NCBI GenBank assembly: GCA_002747735.1
Contig: PDQE01000060.1
Span: 1-26,775 of the forward strand
Reading direction: 5' to 3'
Source: Flavobacteriales bacterium
Lineage (GTDB): Bacteria > Bacteroidota > Bacteroidia > Flavobacteriales > Flavobacteriaceae
Length of the DNA: 26,775 nt
Shown: positions 220-24,059 of the stretch, piece after piece
Numbering within the stretch: position 1 is the first letter of the stretch
Layout of the letters: each line of letters begins with the position of its first letter
The notes under the pieces: generated by a model
What the model was told of the DNA's origin: nothing
The model's input: only the letters and a program-made list of their open reading frames with translations
Databases searched by the model: none
Program-made: the position numbers and the translations under genes

Positions 220-288
220 TATCGATAAGCAGTAAAAAACACTTTGAAAAGAAGGATAGATGTGGTCGTGCCTGTTAGACTATATCAA

Positions 289-653
289 CCTGAATTCGAT
301 TAATATTGTGACCACAGCTTTCTTTATTTTTGATTAGAAATTTTATGAAATTTTCGAGTAATATGAGATGTTACGAGGAGATTTCGGGAAATTTATGGCA
401 AAAAGAAGAAAGTCTTAACAAGAAACGTATATAACACCTCATCTTTGCACTTAAAAACCTTTGAAATATAATGATGAATTTTTGTGATAGATAAGGCGTG
501 AAAATTAAGTATAGATAGCTATGATTTATTTTTACAACGCAGTATAGCTTAAAAAGGCACATTTTATTGAGTAATTTTGATGCAGAAATGGTATTAAGTA
601 CAAATCTAAAGTATTCTATACGTTCTGTGAAAACAATATTAACCGAATTCAGG
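289..653. mobile_element. R1 miniature inverted-repeat element, copy A (interrupted by an R2 element)
   Basis: The ends are 29-bp imperfect inverted repeats (289-317 and 625-653) starting CCTGAATTCG. The first 76 bases are identical to the reverse complement of the copy at 20701-20905, and a 36-base block before the right end is also identical. The identity shows the two copies share a recent origin. The middle is replaced by an R2 element (429-594). Taking AACCTG/CAGGCT as the outer ends, ATC flanks both sides, which would be a 3-bp target duplication. It encodes no protein, so it is called a MITE-like, non-autonomous element. Confidence 0.7.
429..594. mobile_element. R2 inverted-repeat element, nested inside R1 copy A
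   Basis: This 166-base segment aligns along its length with 22676-22841, which is also 166 bases. Both share TGATAGATAAGGCGT, a central TAGCTAT hairpin and GGCACATTTTATTGAGTAAT near the right end. The right end GCAGAAATGGTAT pairs with a degenerate left end. It sits between the two arms of the R1 element, replacing about 35 bases present in the uninterrupted copy. A 63-codon minus-strand ORF (371-562) in it is a by-product of the repeat. Confidence 0.65.
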
Positions 654-4545: not shown

Positions 4546-4692
4546 TTATACCAACATCAACACCGGATTCTCTATATACTCTTTTAAAGTTTGCAAAAAC
4601 TGTGCTCCGGTTGCACCGTCCACAGTTCTATGATCACAGGCTAAGGTCATTTTCATGGTGTTGCCTACAACAATTTGACCATTTTTAACAAT
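4546..4692 (-). pseudogene. Out-of-frame 3' remnant of the pdhC (E2) gene
   Basis: This minus-strand stretch encodes 48 residues, beginning IVKNGQIVVGNT and ending ENPVLMLV before a TAA. It is the C-terminal end of dihydrolipoamide acetyltransferase, including the catalytic signature DHRTVDG. It has no start codon and lies one frame away from the upstream ORF, which stops at 4685. In the family, about 24 residues separate GMFGI from the VKNGQ motif; here only four bases do. The gap therefore reflects a net loss of about 68 bp, not a single-base slip. Confidence 0.85.
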
Positions 4693-6127
4693 ACGTTATG
4701 CCAAACATTCCCAGATTAGAAACAGTAAAAGTGCTGCCTTCCATTTCTTGGGGAGTCAATTTCTTGTTTCGTGCCTTGCCGGCGTATTCTTTTACGGCAG
4801 CATTAATTTGTGGTAGCGATTGTTCATTGGCAAATCGCAATACCGGTACTACCAATCCATCCTCAACGGCTACAGCTACACCAATATGTATGTGATGGTT
4901 GATTCTCATCTTATCATCAAACCATTGAGAATTAACTTGTGGATGCTTTTTTAATGCCAAGGCTACAGCTTTTATAACCATATCATTATAGGAAATTTTG
5001 GTGTCCGGCTGGCTGTTAAACTGCTCTCTAAAGGCAATGGCATTATCCATATTATACTCCACATTGAGGTAATAATGCGGAGCGGTAAACTTAGATTCTG
5101 CAAGCCTTTTGGCAATAACTTTACGCATTTGCGAATTGTTTATCTCTTCATAATGCTCCTCTCCGGAAGGTACAAAAGGCTGTGTGCCAACTCCTGCAAC
5201 TGCAGGTGTAAAGTTTTCAATATCCCGTTTTATAATTCTACCACCATCGCCTGTGCCTTTTACCTGATTGAGATTAATTCCTTTTTCCTCCGCCAGTTTT
5301 TTGGCCAGAGGCGAAGCTATAATTCTACCACTGGTACTTGTTGTGGTAGGTTTTGGTGTGGGGGTGGTTACAGCTTGCTCTTTCTTTTCCGGCTGGCTGA
5401 TTTTAGTTTCTTTTTCGGTTGCTTCTTTTTGGGGTTCTTCTTTGGATGTTGTTTCGCCGGATTTTTGAAAGCCCCTTTCTTTAATGGATTTTACCAATTC
5501 TTTAATGTCTGTGTCTTTTTTGCCAATAATGGCCAAAACACTATCCACCGGAGCGGTTTCCCCTTCTTTAATACCAATGTAAAGCAGGGTACCCTCATAA
5601 AAAGATTCAAATTCCATTGTGGCTTTGTCGGTTTCTATTTCTGCGAGGATTTCACCTTCTTTTACACTTTCCCCTTCCTTTTTTATCCACGTAGCTACGG
5701 TTCCTTCTTCCATGGTGTCACTCAACCGCGGCATGGTAATTATTTCTACTCCTTCCGGAACATTCACATTGGTTTTTTCTTTTATTTCTTCATTGGTTTC
5801 TGTTGCAGTCTCTTTCTTTTCTGCTTCTTTAACCGTTGTATTTTCATCTGAAGTGTTGATGCTTTCTAAAATTTTGGAAATATCTTCATTTTTTTCACCA
5901 ATAATGGCCAAAAGGGTATCTACTTTTGCTGTATTTCCTTCATTTATACCAATATACAACAGCGTACCTTCGTGGAAAGATTCAAATTCCATTGTGGCTT
6001 TGTCGGTTTCTATTTCTGCTAAAATGTCACCTTCTTCAACGTGATCACCAACTTTTTTTAACCATTTGGCAACGGTGCCTTCTTCCATAGTATCACTTAA
6101 ACGTGGCATATTTATAACTTCAGCCAT
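4685..6127 (-). CDS. pdhC: Pyruvate dehydrogenase E2 (dihydrolipoamide acetyltransferase), truncated by a frameshifting deletion
   Basis: E2 is the core of the pyruvate dehydrogenase complex and transfers acetyl groups from lipoyl arms to CoA. Two lipoyl domains are clear (about residues 3-78 and 128-203), each with the motif ETDKAT; the lipoylated lysines are K43 and K168. Linkers rich in Glu, Lys, Thr and Pro follow each. A peripheral-subunit-binding domain lies at about 269-306 (ASPLAKKLAEEKGINLNQVK, then GTGDGGRIIKRDI). The acyltransferase domain starts at about 328. The ORF ends at residue 480, a few residues after NLGMFG, and so lacks the DHRTVDG catalytic motif, which survives out of frame at 4546-4692. 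As written the protein could carry lipoyl groups and bind partners but not catalyse acetyl transfer. It lies 84 bases downstream of pdhA, probably in one operon. A true mutation and an assembly error are both possible. Confidence 0.9.
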   Translation of the reverse strand: MAEVINMPRLSDTMEEGTVAKWLKKVGDHVEEGDILAEIETDKATMEFESFHEGTLLYIGINEGNTAKVDTLLAIIGEKNEDISKILESINTSDENTTVKEAEKKETATETNEEIKEKTNVNVPEGVEIITMPRLSDTMEEGTVATWIKKEGESVKEGEILAEIETDKATMEFESFYEGTLLYIGIKEGETAPVDSVLAIIGKKDTDIKELVKSIKERGFQKSGETTSKEEPQKEATEKETKISQPEKKEQAVTTPTPKPTTTSTSGRIIASPLAKKLAEEKGINLNQVKGTGDGGRIIKRDIENFTPAVAGVGTQPFVPSGEEHYEEINNSQMRKVIAKRLAESKFTAPHYYLNVEYNMDNAIAFREQFNSQPDTKISYNDMVIKAVALALKKHPQVNSQWFDDKMRINHHIHIGVAVAVEDGLVVPVLRFANEQSLPQINAAVKEYAGKARNKKLTPQEMEGSTFTVSNLGMFGITYC

Positions 6128-20681: not shown

Positions 20682-20700
20682 AAAAGTTTAATTCTAAAAA

Positions 20701-20905
20701 CCTGAATTCGGTTAATCTTGTTTTCACAGAACGTATAGAATACTTTAGATTTGTACTTAAAAGCATGAAGAAATATCAAGATATTTCAAAGGTGCCATAA
20801 ATTTCCCGAAATCTCCTCATAATATCTGGATATTACTCGAAAATTTCATAAAATTTCTAATCAAAAATAAAGAAAGCTGTGGTCACAATATTAATCGAAT
20901 TCAGG
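20701..20905. mobile_element. R1 miniature inverted-repeat element, copy B (uninterrupted)
   Basis: A 205-bp element with imperfect 29-bp inverted ends (CCTGAATTCG...CGAATTCAGG), in the opposite orientation to copy A at 289-653 and identical to it over a 76-base and a 36-base block. Internal small palindromes include GAAATATCAAGATATTTC and TAATATCTGGATATTA. Counting AACCTG/CAGGTT as the ends, AAA flanks both sides, consistent with a 3-bp target duplication but uninformative in AT-rich DNA. No protein is encoded. It lies in the 367-base gap between the NUDIX gene and sulP. Confidence 0.7.
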
Positions 20906-20977
20906 TTAAAAATACTCAGCCTTTTGGTTGGAGGTTTTGGGTGAAGTAAAATATAACCAAATAAATCTGATATTGAC

Positions 20978-21029: not shown

Positions 21030-22670
21030 ATGACTGAATTTATTAGAAGACGGACTAAAAATGTAGGGAATGATGTTCTAAGCGGGCTTACGGTAGCCTT
21101 GGCTTTGGTGCCCGAAGCGGTGGCTTTTGCCTTTGTGGCCGGTGTGGATCCGCTGGTAGGTTTATATGCCGCGTTTATGATTGGGTTAATTACTGCGGTT
21201 TTTGGTGGGCGTCCCGGTATGATTTCCGGAGCCACCGGGGCATTGGCGGTTGTAATGGTTAGTTTGGTGGCTGAGGGAAATGCTTTAGGAGCAGAAGGTG
21301 AAAATTTGGGCCTGTATTATCTGTTTGCAACAGTAATTTTAATGGGAGTTATACAGATGTTGGCCGGTGTATTTAAATTGGGAAAATTTGTACGATTGAT
21401 TCCGCACCCTGTTATGATGGGCTTTGTAAACGGCTTGGCTATAGTAATTTTTCTGTCGCAATTGGGAATGTTTAAAGAAACAGTGAACGATGAAAAAGTT
21501 TGGATGCATGGGGTAGATCTTTATCTTATGCTGGGTTTGGTAGCTCTTACCATGGGTATTATGTTTGGCTTGCCAAAAATTTCAAGAAAACTTCCGGAAG
21601 CTTTAGTTGCTATTTTAGTAGTTTCGGCTATTGTTATTTTAGGAAAACTTGATGTAGCTACGGTAGGTAGTTTTATTCGTGATGGTGGCGGTGAAGGCTT
21701 AAAAGGCGGATTGCCACAATTTCAAACTGAACTTTTTGCAAAGGTGCCTTTTACTTTGGCGACCCTCAAATTTATTGGGCCGTATGCTTTAATTTTAGCT
21801 GCTATAGGGCTGATAGAATCTTTAATGACATTAAATTTAGTAGATGAGCTTACGGAAACGAGGGGGAATTCTAACCGAGAATGTTTAGCACAAGGCGGAG
21901 CCAATATTGTAACCGGACTATTTGGAGGGATGGGAGGCTGTGCCATGATAGGCCAGTCTATCATTAATATAAAAGGTGGAGGTAGGACACGGCTTTCTGG
22001 TATTGTAGCTGCATTGGCTTTGTTGGCGTTTATTTTGTTTGGATCAGAATTAATTGAGCAGGTGCCTATTGCTGCTTTGGTGGGCGTAATGTTTATGGTG
22101 GTTGTTGGTACTTTTGCCTGGTCTAGTTTTAGAATAATGAATAAAATACCTCGATCTGACCTCTTTGTCCTTGTTTTGGTATCAGGCCTTACGGTAATTT
22201 TTGATTTGGCCATAGCCGTAATAGCCGGAGTAGTAGTGAGTGCTTTGGTTTTTTCATGGGAAAATGCAAAACGTATCCGTGCCAGAAAGCGTTTTAAAGA
22301 AGATGGTACTAAGATTTATGAAATTTGGGGGCCGTTGTTTTTTGGTTCTATAACGGCATTTAATGAAAAATTTGATGTAAAAAACGACCCCAGTAAAGTG
22401 GAAATAGATTTTGTGGAATCTCGTGTGGCAGACCATTCAGCCTTAGAAGCTATTTTTAATCTGGTAAATAAATATGAAGATGCCGGAAAACAAATTAAAC
22501 TAAAACATCTTAGTGAAGATTGTAAAGAATTATTGTACAAGTCCAATCCCAAATTTCACGAAGTAATTGTTGAAGACATAGAAGACCCGCGTTATCATCT
22601 GGCTGCAGACCCGGAAAAATTCTCTAAGGGTTTGGCCAAATATAAATTCCCGGATTTAAAAAAGGAATAA
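21030..22670 (+). CDS. SulP-family inorganic anion transporter
   Basis: A 546-residue membrane protein of the SulP (SLC26-related) family, which moves sulfate, bicarbonate or other anions, usually coupled to sodium or protons. The family signature region is clear near the start: ALVPEAVAFAFVAGVDPLVG (25-44), then GRPGMISGATGALAVV (60-75). Many hydrophobic segments follow to about residue 410. A cytoplasmic STAS-like domain occupies about 430-520 (FFGSITAFNEKF, VEIDFVESRVADHSALEAI). Substrate cannot be read from sequence; no cys genes or carbonic anhydrase gene are adjacent. It has its own well-formed promoter and stands alone. Confidence 0.9.
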   Translation: MTEFIRRRTKNVGNDVLSGLTVALALVPEAVAFAFVAGVDPLVGLYAAFMIGLITAVFGGRPGMISGATGALAVVMVSLVAEGNALGAEGENLGLYYLFATVILMGVIQMLAGVFKLGKFVRLIPHPVMMGFVNGLAIVIFLSQLGMFKETVNDEKVWMHGVDLYLMLGLVALTMGIMFGLPKISRKLPEALVAILVVSAIVILGKLDVATVGSFIRDGGGEGLKGGLPQFQTELFAKVPFTLATLKFIGPYALILAAIGLIESLMTLNLVDELTETRGNSNRECLAQGGANIVTGLFGGMGGCAMIGQSIINIKGGGRTRLSGIVAALALLAFILFGSELIEQVPIAALVGVMFMVVVGTFAWSSFRIMNKIPRSDLFVLVLVSGLTVIFDLAIAVIAGVVVSALVFSWENAKRIRARKRFKEDGTKIYEIWGPLFFGSITAFNEKFDVKNDPSKVEIDFVESRVADHSALEAIFNLVNKYEDAGKQIKLKHLSEDCKELLYKSNPKFHEVIVEDIEDPRYHLAADPEKFSKGLAKYKFPDLKKE

Positions 22671-22675
22671 TCGTC

Positions 22676-22841
22676 TTATACCAGTTCTGCTTTAAAAATA
22701 CTCAAAAAATAAAATGATAAATTTTTGTGATAGATAAGGCGTAAAAATTGAGTATAGCCGTAGCTATAGTTTATTTTTACAACGAAATATAGCATAAAAA
22801 GGCACATTTTATTGAGTAATTTTGAGGTGGAAATGGTATAA
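22676..22841. mobile_element. R2 inverted-repeat element, free-standing copy
   Basis: A 166-bp element starting five bases after the SulP stop codon. The ends TTATACCA...TGGTATAA are inverted, and the similarity continues inward (TACTCAAAAAATAAAATG against CATTTTATTGAGTA). The core has a second hairpin, GTAAAAATTGAGTATAGC paired with GCTATAGTTTATTTTTAC. It matches the nested copy at 429-594 in length and sequence. A 66-codon minus-strand ORF here (22676-22876) is a repeat by-product. Confidence 0.7.
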
Positions 22842-22884
22842 AAAACTAAAGCCATAACGCAGAGCGGACTCTTCATTATGGCTT
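22841..22884 (-). terminator. Rho-independent terminator of the orphan unit
   Basis: AAGCCATAA (22849-22857) pairs perfectly with TTATGGCTT (22876-22884). Inside, AGAG/CTCT closes a four-base loop (TCCG on the minus strand). On the minus strand the stem is followed by TAGTTTTTTATA, a U-rich tail. The plus side lacks one, so it belongs to the minus-strand unit. Confidence 0.7.
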
Positions 22885-23104
22885 AAGCCGAAACAGTTAA
22901 AACAAGTGTAATTACTTTTACATAACTACGCAACTATTCATTTCAAACAGTATCGCTTTTTTAAAGCTGTTTCAGATAAAATACAGTATAAAATTTACAG
23001 TCACAACAATTAAGTCGCTAAATCGTAAGGTTTTATACTTTACGTATTTTATGGATGTTGCCTTATCCAAAAGTTTTCCAATTATTCATGCTAAATACTC
23101 GGTT

Positions 23105-23176
23105 TCACTGAGATAAAACAACAAAGAAAGAACGTTCTTTCATCAGAAACTTTTCTTTGCCTTTAAACTTTCTCAT
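23105..23176 (-). CDS. Micro-ORF 2 of the orphan unit (23 residues)
   Basis: Encodes MRKFKGKEKFLMKERSFFVV followed by LSQ: a strongly basic first half and a hydrophobic SFFVVLS end. Its ATG overlaps the stop of micro-ORF 1 as ATGA, the classic layout of coupled translation. Its start lies inside the 23162-23212 stem-loop. The palindrome GAAAGAACGTTCTTTC forms part of its codons. No family is recognised. Reality as a gene is uncertain because a 23-codon ORF is expected by chance; the overlap and context are the reasons to list it. Confidence 0.25.
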   Translation of the reverse strand: MRKFKGKEKFLMKERSFFVVLSQ

Positions 23177-23212
23177 CCACCCTTTTTTAAGAGGGTTTGA
23201 CCAAAGTTTAAA
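23162..23212 (-). promoter_or_regulatory. Two-tier stem-loop enclosing the micro-ORF junction
   Basis: The outer stem is a perfect 10-bp inverted repeat, TTTAAACTTT (23162-23171) with AAAGTTTAAA (23203-23212). The inner hairpin is ACCCTTTT (23179-23186) with AAGAGGGT (23189-23196), seven of eight positions pairing. The ATGA stop/start overlap of micro-ORFs 1 and 2 (23173-23176) lies between the two stems, so folding could hide the second start until the first ORF is translated (inference). Confidence 0.45.
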
Positions 23213-23232
23213 TTAATGGCCTTAGATAACAT
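23173..23232 (-). CDS. Micro-ORF 1 of the orphan unit (19 residues)
   Basis: Encodes MLSKAINLNFGQTLLKKGG. Its ATG lies about five bases from the predicted transcript start, so it would be nearly leaderless. It ends in Gly-Gly, and the stop overlaps the ATG of micro-ORF 2. It may be a leader peptide that opens the stem-loop around the second start. No family is recognised, and chance occurrence cannot be excluded. Confidence 0.25.
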   Translation of the reverse strand: MLSKAINLNFGQTLLKKGG

Positions 23233-23242
23233 TTCTATGACA

Positions 23243-23272
23243 CAAATATAGTTTAAAGATAATATTTGTCAA
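23243..23272 (-). promoter_or_regulatory. Strong Bacteroidota-type promoter of the orphan unit
   Basis: On the minus strand: TTG (23272-23270, within TTGACAAA), exactly 19 bases, then TATATTTG (23250-23243). This is an essentially perfect TTG-N19-TAnnTTTG match and the best promoter in the window together with that of sulP. The transcript start is expected near 23237. Confidence 0.7.
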
Positions 23273-23325
23273 GTATTTTTAGGCTATACTTATTAGACAG
23301 ATATAAAGCCTTGTTATTAACAATT

Positions 23326-23492
23326 GTTAATAGCGGTCAAGAGCTTTGCGTAGTGGTGGGAAATTGAAGACTGAAGTTTGGATTTAGACGGAACGTAGTA
23401 AAAGCCAATTCTATTGGCCTTTTGCGGCATACGGATCCGAAATGTTCAATTTATCGAGAACTCTGCCATTACGCAAAACTGATGTTAGCGGT
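23326..23492. repeat. Large nested palindrome, attC-like, 3' of the DHFR-family gene
   Basis: Four inverted blocks share one centre near 23410: TTTGCGTAGTGG/CCATTACGCAAA (23345-23356, 23466-23477; one mismatch), AAATTGAA/TTCAATTT (23361-23368, 23445-23452), TTTGGAT/ATCCGAA, and AAAAGCCAAT/ATTGGCCTTTT (23400-23409, 23413-23423; one bulge). Related flanking sequences GTTAATAGCGGT and GTTAGCGGT occur at 23326 and 23484. The layout (large imperfect palindrome right after a single gene's stop) resembles the recombination site of an integron gene cassette. The strict attC core consensus RYYYAAC/GTTRRRY is not matched, so this is an analogy. Confidence 0.55.
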
Positions 23493-23510
23493 TCGGACTT
23501 TTGATATTCT

Positions 23511-24059
23511 TTATTGCTCGTCATAAACTATATTATAAGTCATAATTTGTAATCCATTTTCATAGTTTGAAGTGTCAATAAGCTGTAATTTATGTTTGGC
23601 AGTTGATTGTCCAAACAGTCTAATTCCATCGCCCAATATCAATGGATTGATTTTCAGTTTAAGGACATCTATTTTTTGATTGTCCAAAAGCCAACCTGCA
23701 AATTGTCCACCACCACATAAGTATATATCTGTTCCTTCGCTTTTTTGCAGTTCGTCAATTTCCTTAATATCTATTTTTTTTAATTGTACTTGTGGGTTAA
23801 GGTTTTCGAGTTTTAGATTATTGGAAAAAATGTAATGTTTCATATGTGGATAGGCAGGAGAAGGTTCTCCCGGTATAGCACCAAACTTATATCCGAACTC
23901 ATAAGTTGCTCTTCCCATAATTACGGTGTCATATGATTTTAGGTCACTTAAATATTTATCAATGCCATTTCCAGTATATATAAATTCGCTGACATTATCA
24001 TTTAATCCCGAGATAAAACCGTCAATTGAACTTGCAACGTAATAAACTATTTTTCTCAT
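23511..24059 (-). CDS. Dihydrofolate reductase family protein (RibD C-terminal-like domain)
   Basis: A 182-residue protein of the RibD C-terminal/DHFR-like family, NADPH-dependent reductases related to the riboflavin enzyme and to DHFR. The start MRKIVYYVASSIDGFISG, the TVIMGRATYEFG segment (45-56), the YIFSNN segment, IYLCGGGQFAGWLLD (112-126) and the NPLILGDGIRLFG region (138-150) are typical. Stand-alone members are common in Bacteroidota and mostly uncharacterised, so a role in folate metabolism should not be assumed. It stands alone, with an attC-like palindrome about 20 bases after its stop codon and ribosomal gene rplS 111 bases upstream. This suggests it was acquired as a cassette-like unit (inference). 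Confidence 0.85.
   Translation of the reverse strand: MRKIVYYVASSIDGFISGLNDNVSEFIYTGNGIDKYLSDLKSYDTVIMGRATYEFGYKFGAIPGEPSPAYPHMKHYIFSNNLKLENLNPQVQLKKIDIKEIDELQKSEGTDIYLCGGGQFAGWLLDNQKIDVLKLKINPLILGDGIRLFGQSTAKHKLQLIDTSNYENGLQIMTYNIVYDEQ

What the first reader, a model, noticed from the sequence alone, without database searches (positions are those of the whole stretch)
22841..23272. Orphan ~400-nt transcription unit with near-ideal promoter, terminator, and no ordinary gene
The minus strand carries TTG-N19-TATATTTG and, about 400 bases on, a 9-bp hairpin followed by TAGTTTTTT. Nothing longer than 23 codons lies between them, and I recognise no known RNA class. Such precise boundaries around an apparently empty stretch suggest a dedicated small RNA or peptide mRNA. 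It sits between two unusual repeats (R2 and an attC-like palindrome).
Basis: partly seen in the sequence, partly recalled or inferred. Interest (0 to 1): 0.7.

Follow-up and report, generated by a model that had tools for sequence, protein, structure and literature searches.

The report
Conserved flavobacterial structured noncoding RNA gene
The apparently empty 400-base stretch is very probably a gene for a folded, non-protein-coding RNA that many members of the bacterial family Flavobacteriaceae carry at the same chromosomal spot, that matches no catalogued RNA family, and whose job is still unknown.

Summary
The minus strand of 23272-22840 encodes a ~395-nt RNA (predicted start 23238) of a structured RNA family conserved across Flavobacteriaceae, usually lying between rplS and icd. 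Its unit is an upstream array of GTTNATA half-sites, a sigma-A-type promoter, a multi-helix RNA and a strikingly conserved terminator hairpin.

A covariance model of the 3' domain hits 160 of 249 family genomes at E<=1e-6, including 83 of the 129 outside the main training draw, but 0 of 100 and 0 of 60 genomes of two other families. Models built without the window find it (46.5 bits, next place 21.0). In one clade 48 of 79 predicted pairs carry compensatory double changes, with 96% of cells paired against 40-47% in slid controls. The window RNA folds with z = -7. No Rfam family matches and no shared peptide was found.

It is probably not an icd leader, since it persists without icd. I rate it a new RNA family, most likely a trans-acting regulatory RNA (base pairing or protein binding). 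The F. psychrophilum sRNA Rfp18 could be its ortholog; I could not check this.

The parts
23289..23333 (-). upstream array of GTTNATA-type half-sites (CTATTAACAATTGTTAATAAC plus two degenerate repeats); putative binding site of a transcription regulator of the RNA
   Evidence: Family consensus TTAT.AACaattGTTaATAA-N5-GTT.ATAa-N3-GTTgATat (88 loci aligned on the palindrome); 77 of 144 loci have at least 2 forward half-sites in the first 200 nt after rplS, against 2 of 691 background windows, while 33 of 144 have none in either direction; rare in genomes; present upstream of the RNA where the RNA has left rplS
23243..23272 (-). sigma-A-type (Bacteroidota) promoter TTGACA...TATATTTG
   Evidence: -7 box at -12 to -5 as in PMC9723704 (passage) gives a predicted start at 23238; a relaxed promoter pattern is found in the same stretch in 57 of 106 relatives against 9.5 in single-base shuffles, the strict consensus in only 7 of 106 against 2.2
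22840..23238 (-). the RNA, about 395 nt
   Evidence: fold z-score -7.05 for 23238-22841; no shared peptide; homologs
23126..23141 (-). 5' hairpin GAAAGAACGUUCUUUC; family form UAAAGUAACGUUCUUUA
   Evidence: consensus tAAAGtaACGTTCTTTA; 137 of 155 tested pair cells are standard in clade A3, mostly UAAAG/CUUUA unchanged, so little covariation there; the window's outer pair G-C against family U-A is one double change
23078..23100 (-). GAGTATTTAGCATGAATAATTGG element shared with near relatives (L001, L005, L010, L104; variants seen by eye in L108, L130, L136, L013)
22967..22975 (-). 5' arm CUGAAACAG of the conserved pre-terminator helix (P-last)
   Evidence: aligned by models R1 and R3; family form UUGAAAUAG
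22888..22896 (-). 3' arm CUGUUUCGG of the same helix
   Evidence: two double changes (U-A to C-G) relative to the family form UUGAAAUAG/CUAUUUCAA (by eye); covariation counts
22840..22884 (-). conserved intrinsic terminator hairpin AAGCCAUAA...UUAUGGCUU plus U-run
   Evidence: outer terminator helix paired in 98.9% of cells over 111 sequences (rows were chosen by having such a hairpin, so this percentage is biased)

Best explanation
The locus is a stand-alone gene for a trans-acting, highly structured regulatory RNA of Flavobacteriaceae. Sigma-A RNA polymerase starts at about 23238, probably under a regulator that binds the upstream GTTNATA array. The ~395-nt transcript folds into a 5' hairpin domain, a large central domain closed (in one clade of relatives) by a long-range helix, and a 3' domain (P-last helix plus terminator hairpin), and ends at the conserved intrinsic terminator. 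It then acts in trans on mRNAs or a protein partner. Shown by sequence and comparison: gene boundaries, family conservation, helices, lack of a shared peptide, persistence without icd. Inferred: transcription in this organism, the regulator, acting in trans, and the choice between base pairing with mRNAs (my first guess) and protein binding.
For: Distribution: R1 hits 160 of 249 genomes of the Polaribacter porphyrae family group at E<=1e-6 (189 of 249 at E<=0.1). Many training rows come from the 120 genomes drawn first; among the 129 others 83 hit at E<=1e-6. None of 100 genomes of the group of Chryseobacterium G129 (best 2.4e-5) and none of 60 of the group of Pontibacter G126 (best 0.0014) hit at that cut. 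Synteny: in 9 of 9 further genomes fetched around an R1 hit the RNA follows rplS on the same strand, 8 of 9 with icd next; among the first draw, 69 of 73 genomes with both coordinates listed have it 0.69-2.15 kb downstream of the rplS leader (partly by construction). Window membership with models that exclude it and seven near relatives: R2 43.0 bits, E 5.9e-5; R3 46.5 bits, E 4e-7. Covariation: A1, 111 sequences, 89.6% of cells paired against 37-47% slid, 212 double-change cells against 67.9 in shuffles, 0 of 500; A2, 45 sequences, 94.9% against 38-49%, 55 cells against 15.1; A3, 33 sequences, 96.1% against 40-47%, 277 cells against 70.2, 48 of 79 pairs, 0 of 500. Window fold z = -7.05. Array and promoter accompany the RNA in G107, G108 and G110, where it has left rplS. 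The RNA is kept without icd in the stretch read (window; L001, L057, L163, L167, L184; G148), and 56 of 82 adjacent icd genes have an exact -7 box of their own. No Rfam match within the RNA in 29 scanned sources.
Against: No transcript has been seen here. The RNA evolves fast: the hold-out model R2 found only L012 and L001 (E 0.019) among ten sources, missing six relatives in which the array, the terminator or both are visible by eye, and outside the nearest clade only the 3' domain and the 5' hairpin align with the window. About a third of family genomes give no R1 hit at 1e-6, and about eleven of the 59 first loci with rplS have too little room after rplS for the RNA. 82 of 110 relatives have icd within 700 nt downstream, so a cis role in some lineages is not excluded. 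The strict promoter consensus is rare in relatives (7 of 106). Nothing directly identifies a target or protein partner. E-values of home-made models are rough.
Confidence: 0.6

Rival explanations
1. Cis-acting leader (riboswitch or attenuator) of icd: the folded RNA senses a signal and its terminator decides whether icd is transcribed.
For: A structured RNA ending in a terminator upstream of icd within 700 nt in 82 of 110 relatives; it stayed with icd and left rplS in G107, G108 and G110. 26 of the 82 icd genes show no exact -7 box of their own.
Against: In the window the next gene is the convergent SulP-type gene 21030-22670. The RNA also stands before other genes or convergent ones with no icd in the stretch read (L001, L057, L163, L167, L184; G148) or with icd further off (13 of 110). 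56 of 82 adjacent icd genes have a TAnnTTTG box after the terminator.
Confidence: 0.1
2. Protein-binding scaffold or sponge RNA, an RNP like 6S or the large ornate RNAs OLE/ROOL/GOLLD, rather than an mRNA-pairing sRNA.
For: Size and 15 helices in one clade; nearly invariant helices such as UCAA/UUGA (99.2% paired) and the terminator stem; a self-complementary loop core AACGUU in 57 of 107 that could kiss.
Against: No match to known RNP RNAs in Rfam. The palindrome is not kept: 30 of 107 lack the core and 9 have an imperfect one. No protein partner is known.
Confidence: 0.25
3. mRNA of a small peptide or a decayed gene.
For: A 23-aa ATG ORF and a 32-aa TTG ORF exist in the window unit; one homolog has a 68-aa ATG ORF.
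Against: No 5-residue word is shared by more than 9 of 107 homologs; median longest ATG ORF is 25 aa; compensatory changes speak for structure.
Confidence: 0.02
4. A DNA element rather than an RNA: a replication origin or DnaA-box cluster with adjacent AT-rich DNA.
For: The array resembles DnaA boxes (TGTTNATAA; recalled resemblance) and is rare per genome.
Against: Strand-corrected third-position GC skew in G063 is negative in 19 of 20 stretches sampled over about 400 kb on each side, with no change of sign at the locus (one genome only); helix covariation shows RNA-level selection.
Confidence: 0.03

Closest known systems
Rfp18 and the other Rfp RNAs of Flavobacterium psychrophilum (PMC9723704; abstract, one section and passages read)
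   Same: Stand-alone, structured, non-Rfam flavobacterial RNAs; sigma-A promoters with TAnnTTTG in that organism; Rfp11, 13, 15 and 18 are described as structured and conserved in other species; two metalloprotease mRNAs are lower without Rfp18
   Different: Position, length and sequence of Rfp18 are not in the main text passages I saw and supplements were not available, so identity is untested; it is called widely conserved in the genus, whereas this RNA spans the family
6S RNA, tmRNA, RNase P RNA, SRP RNA
   Same: Structured stand-alone RNAs
   Different: No Rfam or ARAGORN match; the paper lists these four as known RNAs in F. psychrophilum, apart from the newly described set
OLE, ROOL, GOLLD (large ornate bacterial RNAs; start of one abstract in the listing, otherwise recalled)
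   Same: Large, multi-helix, conserved bacterial RNAs
   Different: No Rfam match; smaller; different taxa; no evidence of oligomers here
icd and icd-II motif RNAs (PMC8632094; passages read)
   Same: Structured RNA upstream of an isocitrate dehydrogenase gene
   Different: Those are three-stem-junction leader candidates in Proteobacteria; this is a ~400-500-nt terminated unit that persists without icd

Membership tests
Family described here (rplS-downstream RNA of Flavobacteriaceae) | Lies downstream of rplS (or upstream of icd) on the same strand | tested here: met
   rplS 24554-24171 minus, RNA 23238-22840 minus; relatives
Family described here (rplS-downstream RNA of Flavobacteriaceae) | Upstream GTTNATA array | tested here: met
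   Inverted pair TATTAAC/GTTAATA at 23333-23313; the further repeats are degenerate in the window
Family described here (rplS-downstream RNA of Flavobacteriaceae) | 3' domain: P-last helix plus AAGCCAT terminator | tested here: met
   Hold-out model R3: 46.5 bits, E 4e-7, next place in the window 21.0 bits
Family described here (rplS-downstream RNA of Flavobacteriaceae) | Central domain closed by AUUGUUUUUUGA/UCAAGAAAAACAAU | tested here: inconclusive
   Present in the 33-sequence clade; in the window a different pairing is predicted and I could not align the region
Any Rfam 15 family | Score at or above the gathering cut-off | tested here: not met
Rfp18 | Same locus or sequence as F. psychrophilum Rfp18 | not testable with these tools
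   The passages and section seen give no location; supplements not available
icd leader riboswitch | Directly upstream of the regulated gene | tested here: not met
   In the window and several relatives no icd lies downstream in the stretch read; in most relatives it does
tmRNA | Found as tmRNA by ARAGORN | tested here: not met

The most novel reading that the evidence does not exclude
A family-wide flavobacterial master regulatory RNA: a 400-500-nt ornate RNA, made under a dedicated regulator that binds an array found almost only at this one promoter, works as an RNP or multi-target regulator of growth-phase or degradative-enzyme expression across marine, soil and fish-associated Flavobacteriaceae.
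Probability: 0.25. Interest if true: 0.85.

Novelty: new variant of a known kind. Interest (0 to 1): 0.68.

Why it matters
Stand-alone structured RNAs are a known kind, but this is a whole family of 400-500-nt RNAs with strong covariation that Rfam 15 does not list, found in about two thirds of the sampled genomes of a major environmental bacterial family (160 of 249), usually at one address. Fixed synteny makes it easy to find and delete in model strains. If the F. psychrophilum ortholog is Rfp18, a published mutant phenotype would already link it to protease expression, and a family-wide regulator would follow. The rare promoter array gives a handle on an unknown regulator.

Tried and rejected
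Replication origin: rejected for one genome by strand-corrected GC skew around the locus in G063; the coarse sampling of G003 was too noisy to use.

Regulon of the array: GTTNATANNNNGTTNATA gives 14 hits in 6 genomes against 16 for the reversed-pattern control. Four of the 14 lie at this locus; of the rest, two lie inside the same coding gene in two genomes (it looks like ftsQ, by recall) and I saw no common theme in the others. So no regulon was found.

Self-palindromic kissing loop as a defining feature: core kept as a perfect or G-U palindrome in 68 of 107, imperfect in 9, absent in 30; not upheld.

Weak Rfam leads (RAGATH-19 at E 2.2, Yfr21 at E 1.3; others) lie far below their gathering scores and were dropped.

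Plasmid and phage similarity: only the attC-like part matches plasmids (4 records), nothing in phages.

Literature: the listings showed no description of an rplS-icd RNA; two discovery papers were checked by term only. Subscription papers and supplements were not searchable.

Rows dropped: 35 of 146 downstream sequences had no recognised terminator and were left out of A1. L063, L105, L165 and L048 look like other terminators; they were kept in A1 but left out. A3 was chosen by shared sequence words and by eye (33 sequences), and its structure was derived from the same alignment. R1 was trained on A1, many of whose rows come from genomes searched again. On recheck the 5' hairpin showed almost no covariation within A3, so I no longer claim it.

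Full report
1. The observation. On the minus strand the unit runs from the promoter TTGACA...TATATTTG (23272-23243) to the hairpin AAGCCATAA/TTATGGCTT and TAGTTTTTT (22884-22840). In F. psychrophilum the sigma-A -7 box TAnnTTTG sits at -12 to -5 (PMC9723704, passage), which puts the start at 23238 and gives a ~395-nt RNA. No ORF of note lies inside: 23 aa with ATG, 32 aa with TTG. The promoter pattern alone is not remarkable: 3 in the window, 1.10 expected. The fold is: -110.9 kcal/mol against -77.2 +/- 4.8 in 100 shuffles, z -7.05.

2. Relatives. A TrmD anchor brought 80 loci, nearly all Flavobacteriia by their titles, the closest at 73% identity (pattern-limited search). A blastn of the RNA against them gave short hits in L001, L010 and L005, all just downstream of rplS, and a chance-level one (E 0.55) in L068. 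rplS was found in 59 of the 80; most of these have an ORF-free stretch of roughly 350-850 nt after it, often followed by monomeric isocitrate dehydrogenase, icd, while about eleven have no room for the RNA. Rfam's L19-Flavobacteria leader then located rplS in 109 of 120 genomes of the family group of G003, the genome of Polaribacter porphyrae (the tool names no groups). 90 of those 109 were fetched, giving 145 different downstream sequences with the first set.

3. Anatomy of the family. Consensus over 107 sequences: an array TTATgAACAattGTTaATAAC..GTT.ATAA..TGTTgATAT; a promoter; a 5' hairpin tAAAGtaACGTTCTTTA; a variable middle; a helix TTGAAATAG ... CTATTTCAA just before the terminator AAAGCCATaTCA...TGATATGGCTTTTgTTTTT. 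The window has each of these, the array in part. Its pre-terminator helix CTGAAACAG/CTGTTTCGG differs from the family form by two U-A to C-G double changes.

4. Covariation. In the 3' domain of 111 sequences (A1, chosen by the terminator, not by the helix) 89.6% of cells pair against 37-47% for slid partners, and 212 double-change cells occur against 67.9 in shuffles (0 of 500). In the pre-terminator helix all 10 pairs show double changes, for example G-C 51 / A-U 27 and U-A 33 / C-G 24; 79.6% of its cells pair, so it is not found or not aligned in every row. In 33 sequences of one clade RNAalifold predicts 79 pairs, 15 helices by the counting tool; 96.1% of cells pair against 40-47% slid, and 48 pairs have double changes. 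This clade has a long-range helix AUUGUUUUUU/AAAAACAAU that closes the centre. That helix could not be transferred to the window: the middle has diverged and folds differently. The 5' hairpin pairs in 137 of 155 cells in this clade but hardly varies.

5. Is the window a member? A model that contains it gives 54.7 bits, next 17.7. Two models built from 45 sequences without the window and without seven near relatives give 43.0 bits (E 5.9e-5, next 20.3) and, with the pre-terminator helix included, 46.5 bits (E 4e-7, next 21.0). Against this, R2 recovered only L012 and L001 of ten sources, missing L005, L010, L108, L130, L136 and L013, where the array, the terminator or both are visible by eye (L037 and L058 gave nothing either): the window's own subclade is divergent. 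R1 finds the L005 copy at E 3.2e-4.

6. Distribution. R1 hits 189 of 249 family genomes at E<=0.1, 160 of them at E<=1e-6 by my count of the table. 120 of the 249 are the genomes, from which many training rows come; of the other 129, 83 hit at E<=1e-6, though some of these may hold loci. Of the 60 misses 20 are listed, and 16 of those 20 have genomes of at most 2.2 Mb, while 8 of the 189 hits do. The RNA thus seems dispensable in small genomes, with 40 misses unlisted. Outside: 13 of 100 in the group of G129 (Chryseobacterium) and 2 of 60 in the group of G126 (Pontibacter) have matches at E<=0.01, none at E<=1e-6, with best values 2.4e-5 and 0.0014. Scattered hits down to about 0.002 also occur inside family genomes, so I read most of these as noise; the 2.4e-5 hit in G325 was not followed up.

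7. Independence of neighbours. Of 73 first-draw genomes with both coordinates listed (the hit list is cut at about E 2e-8), 69 have the RNA 694-2151 nt downstream of the rplS leader; this is partly by construction. In nine genomes outside that draw, fetched around their hits, the RNA follows rplS in 9 of 9 and icd is next in 8 of 9. The four exceptions among the 73 are a likely contig break (G055) and three genomes (G107, G108, G110) where array, promoter and RNA sit in front of icd but away from rplS. Conversely the window keeps rplS, and its next gene (SulP type, 21030-22670 plus) converges on the RNA; G148 and L167 are also convergent. Downstream of the terminator, icd is within 700 nt in 82 of 110 loci, further in 13, not in the stretch read in 13, and 2 stretches were too short (four of the 13, L048, L063, L105 and L165, are doubtful rows). 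56 of the 82 have an exact -7 box between terminator and icd, 26 do not. Hence I call it a gene rather than a leader.

8. What it is not. Rfam at gathering scores: nothing inside the RNA in the window, eight relatives and twenty more loci; the hits were L19 leaders, a 5S rRNA and, in L116, a Flavo-1 element upstream of rplS. Permissive scans of the window and two relatives gave only matches below gathering. No tRNA or tmRNA. No shared peptide. Not an origin in G063: strand-corrected skew is negative in 19 of 20 stretches on both sides.

9. How it probably works. I infer transcription by sigma-A polymerase, tuned by a regulator at the array. The array is rare: 9 of 18 genomes match TTATNAACWWWTGTTNATAA, all nine at this locus, with one further place each in G028, G029 and G065, and the other 9 genomes have no exact match anywhere; no regulon could be traced with a related pattern. 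The RNA then acts in trans. The conserved 5' hairpin loop and short unpaired conserved segments are candidate pairing sites; the many covarying helices equally allow a protein partner. I put base pairing first because a flavobacterial sRNA with a mutant, Rfp18, was predicted to pair with protease mRNAs, and its deletion lowered two of them (PMC9723704, section read). Whether Rfp18 is this RNA is unknown to me.

10. Verdict. A real, conserved, uncatalogued structured RNA gene by comparative evidence; function open. 'Not described' rests on Rfam 15 and on the listings only, and the F. psychrophilum supplement may already list the ortholog as a transcript.

Noticed in passing
window 23343-24059: A RibD_C (dihydrofolate-reductase-like, by recall) gene on the minus strand followed by an attC-like stretch sits between rplS and the RNA, like an inserted cassette; up to 76 nt of the stretch (23343-23418) match four Empedobacter/Chryseobacterium plasmids at 83-86%.
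   Followed up: partly
window 22707-22849 and 464-604: Two copies of a ~140-nt repeat (R2) with ATACC/GGTAT ends, 87-92% alike in two blocks; one copy abuts the U-run of the RNA's terminator. Looks like a small mobile element.
   Followed up: no
window 287-364 / 20830-20907 and 588-664 / 20690-20766: Two inverted repeat pairs about 20 kb apart, one 78 nt and 100% complementary, one 77 nt and 91%.
   Followed up: no
window 5481-5746 and 5856-6121: A 266-nt direct repeat at 74% identity inside the 480-aa ORF 4685-6127: perhaps an internal protein duplication.
   Followed up: no
L048 and L055, downstream of rplS: At the place of monomeric icd stands a 408-aa gene; in L048 its start looks like the other, NADP-dependent isocitrate dehydrogenase type (by eye; L055 judged by length only). 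L048 has a similar terminator before it, L055 only a 56-nt gap. Possibly non-orthologous replacement in place.
   Followed up: no
GTTNATA array upstream of the RNA in relatives (e.g. L255, L259, L262, L264): One inverted plus three direct half-sites 11-13 nt apart, rare in genomes; the binding protein is unknown.
   Followed up: partly
G029:C1:2338262, L013 downstream of the terminator, L108 near position 690 after rplS: A second copy of an array-like palindrome lies just after the RNA in a few genomes.
   Followed up: no
G325:C15:196211-196379 (L269): The best R1 hit outside the family group, E 2.4e-5, in the group of Chryseobacterium G129; chance or a distant relative.
   Followed up: no
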